A stretch of 64,000 bases of DNA from Gonapodya sp. JEL0774 (taxonomy: Eukaryota; Monoblepharomycota; Monoblepharidomycetes; Monoblepharidales; Gonapodyaceae): the NCBI GenBank assembly GCA_027604505.1, contig JADIIX010000072.1, positions 46,730 to 110,729 on the forward strand, written 5' to 3'. Shown here one piece after another: positions 13,913 to 23,000 of this stretch. A program made the translations under genes and the position numbers. Numbering within the stretch: position 1 is the stretch's first letter; each line of letters begins with the position of its first letter. Below the pieces are notes generated by a model that made no database searches, had not been told where the DNA came from, and saw only the letters and a list, made by a program, of their open reading frames with translations.

Positions 13913-16900
13913 CTATAGCCGTCTAGAAGTCGACCTTTCCGGGTAAGTGAGAAGTTCCCCTTGAGTGCTTTCAGGGGAAACGTCTTCGAAACACAGAAGT
14001 GGAAAGAAGCCAAAGCGAGCAGTGGTGACGTTGAGACCCTATTCAACAAACGCGTCACATGAAGAAACACCGGTGTTCTAAGCTCATGAACCAATCGTCA
14101 AATGATCACCGGGGTGTCTACTCACCCATCCCCACCCATCCGAGTACTCAACTCTCGGCGACACTGTGTCCCCTGCTCGAAGTTTCAACTCATCATCCAA
14201 GACCGGTTCGAACGAAACTGCCACATAAATTAAGGGTTCTGCTGGCTCTGATTCGAGTTGCAACACCAATTCGGCCAAGATCCGTTCTTGATCATTCAAA
14301 TGCTGCTCGAGGAGGGCGTTGGAGGCCCGTAGTTCCGCAACCTTTGCGCAAGCTTTTTCCAGTTCCTCAATTTTTGAGATCTCACGGCCAACCTCCTTCT
14401 GGAGTGAATCTCGTTGAGTTTGAAGTTCGGCATTTCGAGTTTGCAATTGAACGATGAGTGAATTGGATTCTTCCTGAGTCGAGGGTACAGTCGTCAACAT
14501 CTATAGGTTTTCATGGACAGCGTGAAGATTCAGTAAACGCATGCAATGGATTCAAGTAAGCTCTCGCATTGAGCTCACAGTTGTTGACAATCCACGATTG
14601 CTCTCCTTCTCCAAGAGTGTGGTCCTTTTCGTCAGTGGATCCAACTGCTGGATAGTGACACGGCTTGTCTCGCGTCCACTGTCCATCGTGGGAAGACCGG
14701 GTGAGTATATGCGCTCTCCATTCCGTGTTTGAGTATGAGAATCAACGGTGAATCTTTCTTCGGTCAATATGATCTCAGACTCAAGCGTTTTAATCGCTCG
14801 AGCTGAAAATGAAAGTAAGCTCTGATCACTCATCCTCGCATGATATCAAACATACCTTCAAGTCCCAACCTATCCACGTTTTCAAATTCTCCACTGGTCA
14901 GAGGTGGAGGTCGACTCTGCTGCACTCCTTCTTGCCCTTGCGACGATTCCACCACCAGGACGTCTGATTTTCGAATGTGAATCGACGAGGTACTGCTGGT
15001 CATAATGTGATGGCGAGCTTCGACTGTGGCTTTGTCAGAAATAGTTGCTGAGAGTGCAAATGGTGGGATACATGCAGTGAGAGTTGCGTTCGGCCCATCA
15101 AAGCATCGATGCCACTCACTCTCCTCCGATTGCTCCCAAGGAAGATCCCATGTGTCTGCTTCTCCAGAACTTGCAGGGAATACCATAGGATCAGCAGGGA
15201 TATTCCGAACCACACGAAGTTCAGCTAAGTACAAACAAGATTGGATCAGATGAAATAAAGATTGAACCCAGCTCTAAGTTGCTCACCTGTGCGAGTTGTA
15301 CGGGAACTCCCATTCTCCTCAGATTCAACTCCAGTCGCGTGCACGAACGGTGATGTCCTCTCACTGCCGTTAGAATGGGCCTCAAATTCACCCACTGCAC
15401 CCTCCACTGTTGTTCCGGTGCGAATCGAGCGGCGTATCACACGGCGAACAACCGTTGTCGTGATGACCTCTGGCTCTTCCTCCTCAACGATCTCTTCCTC
15501 TGTTGCAGCGGGTTCTCCCTCTTCGGTCACCTCCTCCTCAGCGAATAGTTCTGTGCGACCTACTTGATCGAGTTCAAACTTCCGCGCTGTCCATGCTGTC
15601 GCTTCCTCATAATTGCGTGCAGCGGCTTCCATCTCTCCCGTTTGGGGTGTATTTTGTGATGCAGGGGAGAAATAGGCCTCCCGAGACCTTAATATCGGGT
15701 CATCGATCGATTTGGGTAATTCAGAAGCCAGTTCCGTGAGGGACAGTACAGATGCGGAAGGACGAATTGTTCTCCCTCGCTCCACACTCTCGGCTGGTAG
15801 GGCATATGCAACTTGTTCTCCCAGCTTGGCTTCGAAGTTCGAATGGTCTTGCTCACTTTGGACCTCAGAGTTACCAGAGAGAACGATCCACTGCACAGCA
15901 GACCCTGACACAAGTTCTGTCGTGGTCCTCTGGACTTGATCTTGAACCAATTCATCTTTCAACACTTGCCCTGCTGCCCGTTCCGAAACTCGAAGCACTC
16001 TCACTGTTACCGTTGTTGCATCCTCCAGCTCGTCTTCTTCCACCAGCTCTTCTTCAGTTGGCGATTCCGCCTTCATGATACGGTGGACCACCCTGCTCAC
16101 TTCCGTTTTTGTCTGACTTCCCAACGAAGGCTCTTCCAGTGATCTCTCTGAGACTTCTTCGATCTCCTCCGCTTCTTCTTCCGTAACTTCGAGTTCGCGC
16201 ACCTCCTCCACCACCTCAAATTCAACTTCATTTATTTCCTGAATTTCAAGTGAGCGTTCCTCTTCATCCACAATTTCCTGGACTTCGATCTCCTCCATCG
16301 CCTCCACTTTGACCTCCCGAGTTACTTGTACATTAATCTCCTTCGTCTCCGTTTCAATAACTTCAAGCTCCTCAACTTCGATCTCATCCATTTCCTCAAC
16401 CTCGAGTTCCTCAATAGCTTCCTCTTCAAGCTCCTGCACTTCGACCTCTTCCACGTCGTAGGAAAATTCCTCTTCTTCATCGAACTCCAATTCCTCTTCG
16501 ACCTCGAATTCCTCCAATTCAAGAAGTTCCGGTTCAATAGCTCTTGCAACCGCCGGAGGTTCGGCTTTTACGATCTCGATAACAGGTTGAGCAGGAGTGA
16601 CAGATCTCGGAATCTGAGGTGTTTCTATCGGAATGTCGGGCATCATAACCGGTAGCTCCTCTTCTGGTTCCAAAACTTCCTCGACAGGTGGAGGAGCAGG
16701 CTCCACAGGGGGGGTGACTGGTCGTTCAGGTGTAATCGCTCGAGGAACTTGCGGAACTTCTTCGGGCAAGTCCGGCATCTCCACTGGCGCTTCTTCTTTC
16801 TGTTCCGGAACTTCCTCAATAGGTGGAGGAGCGGGGTCCACAGGGGGGGTGACTGGTCGATCGGGTGTGATTGCCCTCGGAATCTGAGGGACTTCCTCCG

Positions 16901-19474
16901 GTACGTCCGGCATCTCCACCGGCACCTCTTCTTCCGGTTCCGGAACTTCCTCAATAGGTGGAGGAGCGGGCTCCACAGGGGGGGTTACTGGTCGTTCGGG
17001 TGTAATCGCCCTAGGAATTTGCGGAACTTCCTCAGGAATGTCGGGCATCTCCACCGGGACTTCTTCTTCCGGTTCCGGAACTTCCTCAATAGGTGGAGGA
17101 GCGGGCTCCACAGGGGGGGTTACCGGTCGTTCGGGTGTAATCGCCCTAGGAATTTGCGGAACTTCCTCAGGAATGTCGGGCATCTCCACCGGNNNNNNNN
17201 NNNNNNNNNNNNNNNNNNNNNNNNNNNNNNNNNNNNNNNNNNNNNNNNNNNNNNNNNNNNNNNNNNNNNNNNNNNNNNNNNNNNNNNNNNNNNNNNNNNN
17301 NNNNNNNNNNNNNNNNNNNNNNNNNNNNNNNNNNNNNNNNNNNNNNNNNNNNNNNNNNNNNNNNNNNNNNNNNNNNNNNNNNNNNNNNNNNNNNNNNNNN
17401 NNNNNNNNNNNNNNNNNNNNNNNNNNNNNNNNNNNNNNNNNNNNNNNNNNNNNNNNNGACAGGTGGAGGAGCGGGCTCCACAGGGGGGGTGACCGGTCGT
17501 TCAGGTGTAATCGCACGAGGAACCTGCGGAACTTCCTCGGGCAAATCCGGCATCTCCACCGGCATCTCATCTTCTGGTTCCGGGACTTCCTCGACAGGTG
17601 GAGGAGCGGGCTCCACAGGGGGGGTGGCCGGTCGTTCAGGTGTAGTCGCCCGAGGAACCTGCGGAACTTCCTCGGGCAAATCCGGCATCTCCACCGGCAT
17701 CTCGTCTTCCGGTTCCGGGACTTCCTCGACAGGTGGAGGAGCGGGCTCCACAGGCGAGATGACCGGTGTATCCGGTGTAATAGCTCGAGGTATCTGTGGC
17801 ACTTCGTCTGGCACATCAGGCAGGTCGACGGGCGTTTCCGCTTTCGGTTCTGGATCTACTTCAATCACGGGTGGAGGTCCTGACACTTCAAACGGTGGTT
17901 CCCATGGACGTTTTTTAGCTGCGCGCATTGGAGGGAGGGTCAGCCTCGGTTGGGATACGGGTGGTTGGATGGGAGGTTTCTTTTCGATTCGAGGATCACG
18001 ACAGTCACCCACTGCCATCCACGGTTCAGCGGGTTGAAAAAGTTTCCGTGGAATAGCAGCACCAGGGGTATTTTTCGGGAAATTCGGGGGTGGAGAACGG
18101 GCGAGCATGGGTTTCTCAGGGGGAGGCAAGTTCAGCATGGGTTCAGATGGTGGCTGAACGTCCACTGGCGCGTAATAGGGAGGCGGAATATCTGTTCGAC
18201 TGAGCGGTTCGGGCGGATTCTCACAAGGACCAGAAGGTTGGGCGACTCTCGACACCTGTAAGTACCGATGAAATGGGTCAGGTTGAAAATTTTTCACATT
18301 TCACACCCTATCCAACAACCAATAAACCGTACCTCCGCAGTCTCCCATCGGTTCCAATCCACAGAGTCATACGCTGACCACCACCGCTGCTGAATATCCC
18401 GGAAAGTTTCGTAGGATACATTAGACCTTGTTCGTGGTGATGTTACGGTGAGTTTTAATTATGAATTGCTTACAAACGTCCCAAATAGTCGGTCGAGCTG
18501 TAATCAACTGTGCCGGACTCACATTTGACCCTTGTCGATTTGCACATCTCCTGCAGCTGAGCGCTTTAGATTCCAAGGCTTGGATTCTCCGGCATAATGA
18601 AGGATCCGGATGTCATTTTTGAATTTGCTACAAAATCCGCAGGTTGATATGTGTTCTGCAAAATCAGGTTCCCCGTCGGTGCCACTCACTTGAAAGCAGG
18701 GGCATAGGTGTAAGTGGCAGAAGGGGTGACATTGTACACAAATGGCAACCGCACGGATCTCATTGCATCAGAGCCGAACGAGGCTCCCGACGCGGCCCAC
18801 GAAGAGAAAAACGAGTTGAGAACACCCTGATCGGCACCTAAGAAAGTTTTTTTTTTTTTTGGAAAGATTAGACGACCAGGATAATCTTCTTGTCGTGCGG
18901 CTATTCCCGTACCATCAAAACTTCCTTCCCGTGCAGCGGTTTCCACAATCCCGTTGAAAACGGTTCTCTCAGGCCGCGTGACAAACACTCCCGAATTGAA
19001 AATATCAGGCCATCCCGTGTCTGCAACTGCTGCAAAGACTGCCCGATCAGGGCAGCCAGGTACCCCCAGCACGTCGAACAGGTCGATAACGCTCCTCTGC
19101 GGTATTACGTCGGCATCAAGGTAAACAATAGTATCCCATCGCCCTGTTACCTCCGGATCGAACACGTGAAGCTTCGTCAGAGCTTCCCGGAGGTCTGGTC
19201 TTTCCAGGAGTCCTTCAAGTCGCCACAAGTCCGAGCTCCTTGTGAGGATGGGGTCGACATGGATAATGCGATCGAAAAACCGTGCGATCACGGAAAGCGA
19301 CACGGGTTGGAGGGATCCCGCTGAGACGAGGATTGCGATATCAGGAGCAGGAGAAGTGGGGGTCGCAGGGTGTAATCGTCTCAAGGCATCCGCGAGAACG
19401 CAAGCCGGCGTGACATAGGAATCGGAGGTGATGAGCGTGACAAACGCTCTTTGGTTTTGGGAAGGGGTGCGCAT
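13913..19474 (-). CDS. giant glycogenin: GT8 domain + 45-residue repeats + coiled coil + SH3
   Basis: Glycogenin primes glycogen synthesis by self-glucosylation from UDP-glucose. Exons are 18913-19474, 18690-18837, 18523-18627, 18333-18426, 15287-18255 (contains the N gap), 14856-15224, 14579-14802, 14126-14500 and 13913-14038. Every junction is in phase if the gap is a multiple of three. Residues 1-270 are a GT8 domain: FVTLITSDSYVTPACVLADA at 11-30, DxD in YLDADVIP (DAD 120-122), FNSGVFV, GADQGVLN, then ILHYAGESKPWN. The next exon gives QRWWSAYD, as follows KPW in fungal glycogenins. Then come Pro-rich sequence, tandem 45-residue Pro/Glu repeats, a Glu-rich segment of about 150 residues, a predicted coiled coil (QLQTRNAELQTQRDSLQKEV) and a C-terminal SH3 (VAVSFEPVLDDELKLRAGD, SDGWGW, then GLNVTTARFGFFPLLCFEDV). 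About 1,570 residues are visible plus the gap. Fungal glycogenins often carry long acidic tails; an SH3 end is unusual to my knowledge. Confidence 0.85.
16585..17838 (-). repeat. 135-bp tandem repeat coding a Pro/Glu-rich 45-residue unit
   Basis: The unit reads approximately PVEMPDIPEEVPQIPRAITP then ERPVTPPVEPAPPPIEEVPE then PEEEV. At least eight units can be seen: three on the N-terminal side of the gap (the third cut by it) and five on the other, the last degenerate. Units next to the gap at 16920-17190 are almost identical in DNA, while outer units differ (DLPDVPDEVPQ, VMMPDIPIETPQ). This fits recent expansion in the middle of the array. Each unit carries acidic patches and PxxP motifs. 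Confidence 0.92.
17193..17457. other. assembly gap (265 N) inside the coding repeat
   Basis: A run of N interrupts the 135-bp repeats. Comparing flanks with intact units, the missing DNA should be 30 + 135k nt, a multiple of three. The recorded 265 is not, so the frame appears to shift across the gap only as an artefact. Confidence 0.95.
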
Positions 19475-20046: not shown

Positions 20047-23000
20047 ATGCCTGAAAAGGCACTAAAGCAGATGGGATTGCTTGGTCGCGTCTTTGGAAAG
20101 AGACCCCCGTCACCTGCTCCTTCTATCAGTTCACCAGAGTTCCCATCAGCGGGCAAACTCAACGACCTTGAGATTATCAAGCTGCTTGGTTGGTCTTGGT
20201 GGTTTTGAATCTCTCTTATCTACGTTTCCCACCCCATTTTGTCTCCTCCGTCATCATCTGTGCTTATTTTACAACAAAAGGCAAGGGCAAAGAAGGCCGT
20301 GTTTTCGAGGCCACACACCGACCAACAGGAATTCATGTCGCTGTTAAGGAAATCTCAAAGCCCAGAACGTTGTTTGGAAGGCCGGGTGATCCACTCAAGG
20401 AGGCAGAGATGAGGAAGAGCATTCAGAATGAAATCGATATCATGAAGTGAGTTTCTTTGAATGATTACCAAGGTATGGAGGTATCAGTGAGTGACAATGT
20501 GTGCAGTTGTGGGGATGTGAGGACATGTCCCATTGTGCACATACCAACAGTTCGGGAACTCAGTATCTGGGCGGTCCTGCGGCACGACTGTAATAAGTTG
20601 TGCGTGATAATGGGGTGTTTGAGCACCTTAAAAGTGGCTTTTCTGGCAACAACGCTTTTTATGTCACGAGGTCTCATCATCCCACATTGGGGCCTCTTTA
20701 CTGTCTCGTTCGTTGGATCCCAAATCTCGCGGCGTAAACACACGTAATCGAAGACGAATTCACCATCCAGCAATCATCCGCATGTACGATCATTTTGAGA
20801 CCAAGGACAAACACTACTTGGTTTTTGAAATGGCTACGGGGGGTGAATTGCACGACCGGATTGCAGAGAGAGGCCATTTCACGGAGAGGTGTGTGTTCTC
20901 ATCGTTCATACTAATCACATAGAGATTCACTGATGAGGGATCTCGACCTGGTTCCCCAGGGACGCGGCTATCACCATGGCCACCTTAATCAATGCAATCG
21001 GGTTCCTCCACAAGCATGGTGTCGTACACCGGGTAAGACTGCGTAAAGCCTCTCCATTTATGCACCTTCTCAGTAAGTCTGATTTCCGCTCACCATAGGA
21101 CATCAAGTCTGCCAATGTTCTCTTTCGCACCCCTTCACACACTTCGGATATTTGTCTCGTCGATTTTGGTATCTCTCGTGTGGTCGAGCCTGGACAGAGA
21201 CTAACCGAAATGACTGGGACACTGGCGTATATTGCACCCGAGATCCTGTTGCAGAGAGGTTACGGCGCTGGGGTGGATATGTGGGCTGCTGGAGTAATGA
21301 GTGAGTTGGGCTCGGTGAGGTGGGGGATGGGGGGATGGGATGTAACGGTGGACGAGAACCCAATGAAAGAAAGTTCACGTACTCTTGGTCTCGCTTTGCA
21401 TTCTCGTTCTGTCCTCTCACCTCCTATATTATCCTCCGTTTGACTCAAAGCATATGAGCTTGTCTCCGGATACCAGCCCTTCCACAGCATCGAATCCCAA
21501 GAAGACCTTTTTGACCGCATTCTGCGAGCTGACTTTGATTTCCCGACGGAATGGTTTGGAAACGTACGTGTCATCCATTCACGCGGTACATATTGGCGAT
21601 GGAGATAATTGATTCTAGAATACTACTTTCAACAGGTTTCGGAAGAGTGCAAGAATTTCATCAAATGTCTGATACATGTAAGGCACACACGGTATGCGTT
21701 GTTTGCTAATCTCAAGCATTCACATTTTTTTCTTGTTGTCCTGTTCCATGTCTCTTTTCTCCACTGCTCGAATAACCAGACCAACCCCAAAACCCGATAT
21801 ACGGCCGCACAGTGTCTAACCCATCCATGGTTTCTGAAATTTGTTCCTACCGACTACCTTGCTATTCTCTCTGAAATCAACGACGCTGCTGAGCAAATCA
21901 AAGAAGGATTAGAGTCACCTCATCGGATTGAGTATGGCCGCTCTGGACCAGACGCTCAGGGACAGTCGGCGCAAGCCGTTAGCGAAGGCGAGGGGCGGGT
22001 TTTGGATTTAATGGCAGAGCTCCTGGACGAAGAGGACGGGAAGGGAACGTATAGAAGATTAAGAAGCGCTGCCGTCTCTGCTGGAGACACGGCGATCGCC
22101 AAAGCCAAGTTTGGAGGGAAAATGCCGGGCGTTTTGGAAGTGGGAGATTTACTTGGAGGATTGGATGGCAAAAATCTGCCGAATCTGCACCTGAAGTTGA
22201 CCAGGACCGGAGGGAGACGAAGACACAGTGGTGGGTCCCTGTTGTTCAGCTGATGCGGCGAGGTCCTTGTGATAACTCTCTATTGACGACGTTTAGTCTC
22301 CATTGCCGATGTTTCTCGCAGACTACATGTCGAGCACGAACAGAGTCCCCTTGATCTCGCTGCTGCAATTCCTGTTGCATACTTTGATATTGCCCCCGCG
22401 CGTTCTCCTGATGTCCACGGCCGTAGCACCAGTCCACCCTCAGCCGTGACAACGTTCGTTGCCGCAAGTGAGCCGCGAGTGGCTTCCTCGGGCTCTGTGA
22501 CTGTTGAAGAGAGCCTAACGTTACCAGCGCAAGAGCCGAAGCCAGAGCCAGAGACGCCGTTTAGACGAGATCTTGATCATCATGTGGATATTCCTGCGAA
22601 TCACCAAAGTGGTCAGAATGAGTCATCATCAGAGCACTTCTCACATGTAGCTTCTGTCCAAACTCCACGCCCCAGGCGCCTCTCGTTTGACGTGGCGTTG
22701 TATGAACATCGAAAAGAGATCACAGCGGACCCACTTTTTTTCGAGGATGGCAAGCAAGAGACGAAAGACGATGTGACCGAAGAACTTGTTGAGCACTTGG
22801 CAGATTTTGCGAGACCTCAGTCACGTGGTGGGTCACCGGCCATCAGCTCCACAGGTGCAGCACCACTGGTGGGCCTAACGTGGATGGCCCCTGAGACTTT
22901 TGTTGCTCGAACGAGTACACCACCAGGGCGGACCGTGAGCCCTCGAGTGGCCACTCCAGGTCACTCGAAGTTATTCCTCCAAAGGCGAGCCACCCCGCCA

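What the first reader, a model, noticed from the sequence alone, without database searches (positions are those of the whole stretch)
13913..19474. Glycogenin fused to a long repeat region, coiled coil and C-terminal SH3 domain
A GT8 glycogenin domain, ordinary in its first 270 residues, continues in phase through six introns. It runs into 45-residue Pro/Glu repeats, a Glu-rich tract, a coiled coil and a clear SH3 domain split by one intron (SDGWGW | GLNVTTARFGFFPLL). I know of no glycogenin ending in SH3. SH3 domains recruit proline-rich partners, so this may tether glycogen initiation to cortex, actin or an organelle, or fold back on its own PxxP repeats. The join between GT8 and repeats is supported twice: the junction CAAAT|G keeps frame, and KPWN followed by QRWW is the fungal glycogenin order.
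Basis: partly seen in the sequence, partly recalled or inferred. Interest (0 to 1): 0.85.

Follow-up and report, generated by a model that had tools for sequence, protein, structure and literature searches.

The report
Glycogenin carrying a coiled-coil SH3 tail
In the aquatic fungus Gonapodya, the enzyme that starts glycogen granules carries a very long acidic tail ending in a coiled coil and an unusual SH3 binding domain, a tail end shared with ankyrin-type scaffold genes that are numerous in this fungus, so glycogen initiation may be physically tethered to a scaffold network.

Summary
The gene is real: ATG 19474 to stop 13913, minus strand, ten exons, Gonapodya sp. JEL0774. G. prolifera still supports the join: a 1733-aa protein from one 1.57-Mb contig with the same order. 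Of 238 other listed GT8 proteins none scored an SH3.

The new result is the tail's kinship. Contig C261, with ankyrin-like units upstream, ends in the same coil-SH3 (89 of 153 residues identical). Of 78 SH3-like matches in the assembly, 29 have an ankyrin-like unit within 3 kb upstream. Ten of ten coil-SH3 loci examined carry the SH3 intron at the same codon.

The SH3 groove is atypical (Tyr to Val/Ser, Tyr to Cys), and the JEL0774 repeats hold no class I or II ligand site, though each carries PxxPR. Fold-back on the repeats is thus less likely than tethering, which is not shown. New variant of a known kind.

The parts
18913..19474 (-). Exon 1: start ATG and first part of GT8 glycogenin domain, with DxD (LDADV)
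   Evidence: PF01501
18690..18837 (-). Exon 2: GT8 with DQG and acceptor-Tyr region (SATYTYAPAF)
   Evidence: columns invariant over 29 glycogenins
18523..18627 (-). Exon 3: end of GT8 (HYAGESKPWN)
18333..18426 (-). Exon 4: QQRWWSAYDSVDWNRWETAE
15287..18255 (-). Exon 5 (2969 nt, the N gap counted at nominal length): Pro-rich linker, 45-residue repeats, Glu-rich tract, TTTVVRRVIRRS motif
17896..17916 (-). KKRPWEP: the only class I-like SH3 ligand site at the same place in both species; also carries the PWE motif of Basidiomycota-type glycogenins
17458..17822 (-). 45-residue repeats, part upstream of the gap (2.7 copies)
   Evidence: TRF
17193..17457 (.). Run of 265 N inside the repeat array; frame not determined by its nominal length
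16630..17192 (-). 45-residue repeats, part downstream of the gap (4.2 copies)
   Evidence: TRF
16100..16550 (-). Glu-rich acidic tract (limits set by eye)
15120..15224 (-). Exon 6, with WDLPWE at 15150-15133, conserved in G. prolifera (WDLPWD)
14856..15047 (-). Exon 7
14579..14802 (-). Exon 8
14126..14500 (-). Exon 9: coiled coil (about 14476-14249) and first half of SH3 (about 14239-14126)
14039..14125 (-). Phase-0 intron in SH3 (DGWGW|GLN), at the same codon in 10 of 10 other coil-SH3 loci examined
13913..14038 (-). Exon 10: second half of SH3 (GLNVTTARFGFFPLLCFED) and C-terminal PERSTSRRL, stop TAG 13915-13913

Best explanation
One gene encodes a glycogenin whose GT8 head primes glycogen and whose tail is a long acidic Pro/Glu spacer, a coiled coil and an atypical SH3. 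Coil and SH3 are the C-terminal module of a group of ankyrin-coil-SH3 genes that is large in Gonapodya, most simply joined to glycogenin before the two species split. Proposed mechanism: the head self-glucosylates; the disordered acidic spacer keeps it and the growing granule clear of the anchor; coil pairing and an SH3 of non-standard groove plug the protein into the same partner network as the ankyrin-coil-SH3 proteins, so that granule initiation is tethered or clustered. Shown by sequence: gene order, conservation in two species, intact catalytic residues, shared tail module and intron. Inferred: activity, spacer role, coil partner, SH3 ligand, cellular site. I put architecture and tail kinship at about 0.9 and the tethering role at about 0.4.
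For: Same order in G. prolifera on one contig: GT8 217 of 300, SH3 34 of 58, coil 35 of 77 identical, against 92 of 348 for the stretch before the coil. Catalytic D120, D122, D190, Q191, K253 and Y230, Y232 are invariant in 29 glycogenins. The window GT8 is the only intact glycogenin found in the assembly. Tail module shared with C261 (E 3.1e-44; 57% over query residues 3-118). Intron at the same codon in 10 of 10 loci examined, of the 19 other matches; 7 of these 10 have an ankyrin-like unit within 3 kb upstream. In all, 29 of 78 SH3-like matches, C261 included, have such a unit, and 21 of the 29 stop at the intron place. Groove residues differ from vinexin's tyrosines in both species. Yeast Fus1, with Cys at positions 37 and 54, binds peptides without PxxP (passages of PMC5823434); that its position 54 is our Cys is my inference. 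Linker length is reported to govern glycogen particle size in vitro (passage of PMC9188544).
Against: No expression, localisation or partner data. The frame is not closed across the gap. The SH3 falls below Pfam's gathering score in both species (17.8 and 20.1 against 30), AF2 did not fold it confidently from two sequences, and Foldseek gave no match under 0.001. Not every SH3 with an ankyrin-like unit has the intron: 8 of 29 matches run past or lie beyond it, for example C80. No ankyrin-like unit was found in the glycogenin itself. PxxPR is in nearly every JEL0774 repeat, so a repeat-SH3 contact is not excluded. A glycogen-synthase-binding motif was not demonstrated. The GT8 sits on a long branch (1.21), so activity may have shifted. 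The second protein search (C-terminal region) listed only the query's own protein and missed G. prolifera, so spread outside Gonapodya is tested only on the 240 proteins listed.
Confidence: 0.5

Rival explanations
1. SH3 folds back on the protein's own proline motifs (auto-inhibition or compaction). I raised this from 0.12 to 0.15 after rechecking.
For: PxxP is enriched (51 against 23.8 shuffled; G. prolifera 56 against 36.7). PxxPR occurs 8 times in JEL0774, about once a repeat, against 1.4 shuffled. RxxK 5 against 1.6. One class I-like site, KK[RK]PWEP, is at the same place in both species. Two of G. prolifera's four class I sites lie in its Pro/Glu stretch (all).
Against: Class II sites 0 in both; class I within the shuffled range (4 against 2.0 and 4 against 2.8); PxxPR 0 in G. 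prolifera. The PWEPP to WDLPW stretch is strongly acidic. Two groove tyrosines are replaced in both species.
Confidence: 0.15
2. Coil and SH3 serve oligomerisation: the coil pairs, and the SH3 with its conserved C-terminal RSTS tail assembles head to tail, building multivalent primers rather than tethering.
For: High-confidence coil; P[ED]RSTS[KR] end in both glycogenins and C261, close to but not matching the Fus1 ligand R[ST][ST]SL (no full match).
Against: The last residue of the Fus1 motif is missing; no structural support.
Confidence: 0.2
3. Two neighbouring genes or a scaffold mis-join in the repeat array.
For: 265-N gap in the array; nominal length breaks frame. GenBank models merge genes at times.
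Against: The same order in a G. prolifera protein from a 1.57-Mb contig; the same repeat period on both sides of the gap; exon 5 open on both sides of the gap and introns of 53-96 nt leave little room for a promoter. The G. prolifera model was not checked against its DNA.
Confidence: 0.04
4. The tail is passive: a coil-SH3 module captured by exon shuffling and drifting, with glycogenin acting as usual.
For: Ankyrin-like and SH3-like matches are many in this genome (119 and 78); the stretch before the coil is only 26% identical.
Against: SH3 59% and coil 45% identical against 26% for the stretch just upstream, kept in two species.
Confidence: 0.14

Closest known systems
Fungal and animal glycogenin (GT8)
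   Same: Catalytic domain, DxD, DQG, acceptor tyrosines, KPW; PW[DE] motif in the tail as in 111 of 112 long glycogenins P0009-P0120, by their names mostly Basidiomycota
   Different: Very long acidic Pro/Glu tail, coiled coil and SH3; none of 238 others scanned has the SH3
Gonapodya ankyrin-coil-SH3 genes (contig C261 and others)
   Same: Coil plus SH3 and the same phase-0 intron; Cys in the last groove position in 5 of 10 loci; weak match of the TTT..RRVIRR motif to C261 (33%, E 0.005)
   Different: Those carry ankyrin-like units; glycogenin carries GT8 and no such unit was found in it
Yeast Fus1 SH3
   Same: Atypical groove with Cys at positions usually aromatic (passage)
   Different: Fus1 was not aligned here; it has Cys at two positions, 37 and 54; Fus1 is a membrane protein of mating cells (recalled)
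Vinexin / SORBS1 SH3
   Same: Best matches among solved structures (1.6e-7 and 7.9e-7 with the two-species profile)
   Different: Vinexin has Tyr where Gonapodya has Val and Cys; animal adhesion adaptors (recalled)

Membership tests
Glycogenin (GT8) | GT8 domain closest to glycogenin | tested here: met
   PF01501 6.5e-14; glycogenin-2 5.5e-44, 19 of 20 PDB matches are glycogenins; groups with chytrid glycogenins, 97/99
Glycogenin (GT8) | Catalytic DxD, DQG, KPW and acceptor tyrosines | tested here: met
   Invariant columns in 29 proteins; their roles are recalled
Glycogenin (GT8) | C-terminal glycogen-synthase-binding motif | tested here: inconclusive
   PWE and WDLPW present, but a binding role of PWE in fungi is my inference
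Glycogenin (GT8) | Self-glucosylation | not testable with these tools
   needs enzyme assay
SH3 domain | Profile match to SH3 | tested here: met
   PDB profile 1.6e-7; own-genome SH3 profile 8.6e-8 and 2.1e-9; but SH3_9 17.8 and 20.1 bits, below gathering 30
SH3 domain | Canonical PxxP groove tyrosines | tested here: not met
   Two of vinexin's tyrosines are Val/Ser and Cys here (G. prolifera by eye). Control: 20 of the 36 over-cut-off SH3s, of which 18 are readable at the last place: 13 Tyr, 4 Cys, 1 Arg
SH3 domain | SH3 fold in a predicted structure | tested here: inconclusive
   pLDDT 55.8, no Foldseek match under 0.001
Gonapodya ankyrin-coil-SH3 genes | Homologous coil plus SH3 | tested here: met
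Gonapodya ankyrin-coil-SH3 genes | Phase-0 intron at DGWxx|G | tested here: met
   window plus 10 of 10 loci, donors sought within 9 bases of the place
Gonapodya ankyrin-coil-SH3 genes | Ankyrin-like unit | tested here: not met
   Pfam scan of P0001 shows only GT8 and SH3 at E up to 0.1; the ankyrin-unit query has no match on C72. It shares the tail module and is not a full member

The most novel reading that the evidence does not exclude
A glycogen initiator has been wired into a lineage-specific ankyrin-coil-SH3 scaffold network by acquiring the network's own C-terminal module, so that where and how large glycogen granules form is set by scaffold binding through a non-PxxP SH3 and a spacer of about 1000 residues.
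Probability: 0.3. Interest if true: 0.75.

Novelty: new variant of a known kind. Interest (0 to 1): 0.55.

Why it matters
How cells choose where glycogen granules start is, to my knowledge, poorly understood; glycogenin is usually treated as a soluble primer (recalled). Here the primer is joined covalently to a protein-interaction module, and the module's relatives in the same genome point to candidate partners. That makes spatial control of glycogen initiation, and the effect of spacer length on granule size, testable, for example by moving the tail onto yeast Glg2.

Tried and rejected
Fold-back on PxxP repeats: not preferred, not excluded. Mis-join or two genes: rejected on the G. prolifera protein. 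A second intact glycogenin: the C242 match is a fragment with LNADT and FNLG in place of LDADT and FNSG, and I saw no DQG exon by eye; the C16 GT8 is of another kind with a hydrophobic N-terminal stretch (by eye). The C110 match was fetched but not studied.

Protein search with the C-terminal region returned only the window's own protein and missed G. prolifera, so it is not evidence of absence. Structure prediction of coil plus SH3 gave a good coil and no confident SH3, SH3 alone pLDDT 55.8, Foldseek uninformative. The SH3 tree has no starred branch and does not resolve the glycogenin-C261-C128 group. NCBIfam gave nothing. My regex for the chytrid W motif allowed too short a gap and undercounts (15 of 22).

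Papers: searches (listings only, except passages of PMC5823434, PMC5417721, PMC9188544 and PMC3188802). Kim et al. 2008 on Fus1 was not looked up; seen only as cited in two of these.

Full report
What is there. The window is bases 46730-110729 of contig C72 in a 25.0-Mb, 381-contig assembly. Its protein is in GenBank as Glycogenin-2 of Gonapodya sp. JEL0774, 1529 aa, from a contig of 110,729 bases. Gonapodya belongs to Monoblepharidomycetes. On the minus strand, ten exons run from ATG 19474 to TAG 13913, all nine introns GT-AG and 53-96 nt. The annotated protein has the same splicing outside the gap: 557 residues agree before it and 972 after.

The gap. Taken literally it shifts the frame by one. 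Counting along the unit by eye, in-register lengths would be 30, 165 or 300, so 265 is probably an estimate (inference). Continuity rests on repeats of one period at both edges and on G. prolifera.

The second species. P0002 of G. prolifera JEL478, 1733 aa from a 1.57-Mb contig, starts with a GT8 72% identical and ends in a coil and SH3. Identities by region: GT8 217 of 300, linker 58 of 115, stretch before the coil 92 of 348, coil 35 of 77, SH3 34 of 58, last residues 6 of 16; the figures for the Pro/Glu array and Glu tract (158 of 328, 91 of 217) are inflated by composition. The simplest reading is that the fusion predates the split of the two species. I could not read the G. prolifera DNA.

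The head. PF01501 hits at 6.5e-14, human glycogenin-2 at 5.5e-44. In 29 fungal glycogenins D120, D122, D190, Q191, H247, K253, Y230 and Y232 are invariant. A tree of 27 GT8 domains puts the Gonapodya pair in a group of eight chytrid-type rows (97/99) on a long branch of 1.21. In the assembly the only other glycogenin-like match is a degenerate piece on C242, and glycogen synthase matches lie on two contigs, C64 and C10.

The tail elsewhere. A profile of 21 SH3 matches, seeded with vinexin and drawn from 20 domains of this genome, run at full sensitivity over the 240 listed proteins (the best 120 of 203 and the best 120 of 361), found only the two Gonapodya proteins, 8.6e-8 and 2.1e-9; the next was 5.4. 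The remaining 83 and 241 matches of those searches were not seen. Pfam over 29 proteins (the two Gonapodya and 27 chosen chytrid-type relatives) gave SH3_9 in the same two only, below its gathering score.

Where the tail comes from. With the SH3 as query, the assembly's best match outside the window is contig C261, 65% and 58% in the two exons. There the coil too matches, 57% over query residues 3-118, and open frames upstream on the same strand hold five ankyrin-like units by eye; Pfam saw Ank in one of the two C261 frames tested (0.002, 18.8 bits, cut-off 21.1). That all of this is one C261 gene is inferred; I did not splice it throughout. An ankyrin-like unit of this type (query from C273) has 119 matches on 61 contigs. 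Of 78 SH3-like matches (E up to 10, leaving out the two window rows and the second C261 row), 29 have such a unit within 3 kb upstream on the same strand, C261 included; 21 of these 29, and 31 of the 78, stop at the place of the window's intron. In 10 of 10 loci examined (C261, C128, C1, C273, C250, C69, C31, C335, C11, C77, of 19 other matches) a phase-0 intron cuts the SH3 at the same codon; the script looked for donors within 9 bases of that place. Seven of the ten have the ankyrin-like unit within 3 kb; C128, C1 and C335 do not. Other SH3s, such as C52, C58 and C80, read through without the intron.

Exchange. Over 153 aligned positions of coil and SH3, JEL0774 glycogenin shares 89 with C261 and 73 with G. 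prolifera glycogenin, and G. prolifera shares 76 with C261; sites shared by one pair alone are 28, 12 and 15. So C261 and the JEL0774 tail have exchanged or duplicated sequence after the species split, or G. prolifera has diverged faster in this part; the tree does not resolve this.

What the SH3 can bind. In the vinexin alignment two of vinexin's tyrosines face Val and Cys; in G. prolifera the same places are Ser and Cys (by eye). In a control of 20 SH3s, taken from the 36 over the cut-off, 18 are readable at the last place: 13 Tyr, 4 Cys, 1 Arg. In the ten coil-SH3 loci it is Cys in 5, Tyr in 1, other in 4. Yeast Fus1 has Cys at positions 37 and 54 and its targets lack PxxP (passages of PMC5823434); its motif is R[ST][ST]SL (passages of PMC5417721). 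The Gonapodya proteins have no full match to that motif, only RSTS at their conserved C terminus.

Ligand sites in the tail. Class II 0 in both species (shuffled 2.0 and 2.8). Class I 4 and 4 (shuffled 2.0 and 2.8); in JEL0774 at 395, 417, 556 and 1196, of which 556 is made by the annotators' bypass of the gap; in G. prolifera at 411, 796, 875 and 1201, of which 796 and 875 lie in its Pro/Glu stretch. Only KK[RK]PWEP (417, 411) is at the same place in both. PxxPR is found 8 times in JEL0774, about once a repeat (shuffled 1.4), and 0 times in G. prolifera; PxxxPR 1 and 0; RxxK 5 and 3 (shuffled 1.6 and 2.0). I read the repeats as a spacer and not the main ligand, because class I and II sites are lacking and the PxxPR feature is not shared, but the PxxPR count speaks against a firm statement.

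Spacer. Passages of PMC9188544 say that the stretch between catalytic domain and glycogen-synthase-binding end varies and that its length governs particle size in vitro. Net charge from PWEPP to WDLPW is -157 in the annotated JEL0774 protein (gap left out) and -241 in G. prolifera. PW[DE] occurs after residue 280 in 111 of 112 long glycogenins P0009-P0120, against 19 of 112 when each tail is shuffled once; Gonapodya keeps two such sites. That this is a synthase-binding site is inference.

Verdict. The architecture is real and unusual; seven searches of open papers aimed at it listed no description of an SH3-bearing glycogenin, subscription papers being mostly outside that library. It is a new variant of glycogenin made by domain shuffling, not a new kind of enzyme. 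Tethering into the ankyrin-coil-SH3 network is the best-supported role but remains a hypothesis.

Noticed in passing
G000:C261:7229-17156 (L086, L087): Open frames in series with five ankyrin-like units by eye, TTT..RR motifs and the same coil-SH3 end as the window glycogenin; ankyrin-like units of this type have 119 matches on 61 contigs.
   Followed up: partly
L018:4308-4553 (G000:C242): Glycogenin-like GT8 fragment with LNADT and FNLG, apparently decayed.
   Followed up: partly
P0004 and P0005: GenBank models from Blyttiomyces and Phlyctochytrium join a GT8 glycogenin to lanosterol synthase domains: adjacent genes merged, or a second glycogenin fusion.
   Followed up: no
P0003-P0008, P0122-P0144: Many chytrid glycogenins carry one or two Y..W[DN]..E-like motifs in the tail (15 of 22 by a narrow regex, 0 of 22 shuffled), where long Basidiomycota-type glycogenins carry PWE: candidate synthase-binding motifs.
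   Followed up: partly
P0002 1451-1527 and 1575-1650: G. prolifera glycogenin appears to hold two copies of the coil (both match the C261 coil).
   Followed up: no
window 20170-22250, + strand: Divergent neighbour with protein-kinase-like motifs (DFGIS, APEIL) in several open frames, by eye.
   Followed up: no
G000:C52:71170-71379: SH3 frame with a hydrophobic, membrane-like stretch and PERSDSL after the SH3, by eye.
   Followed up: no
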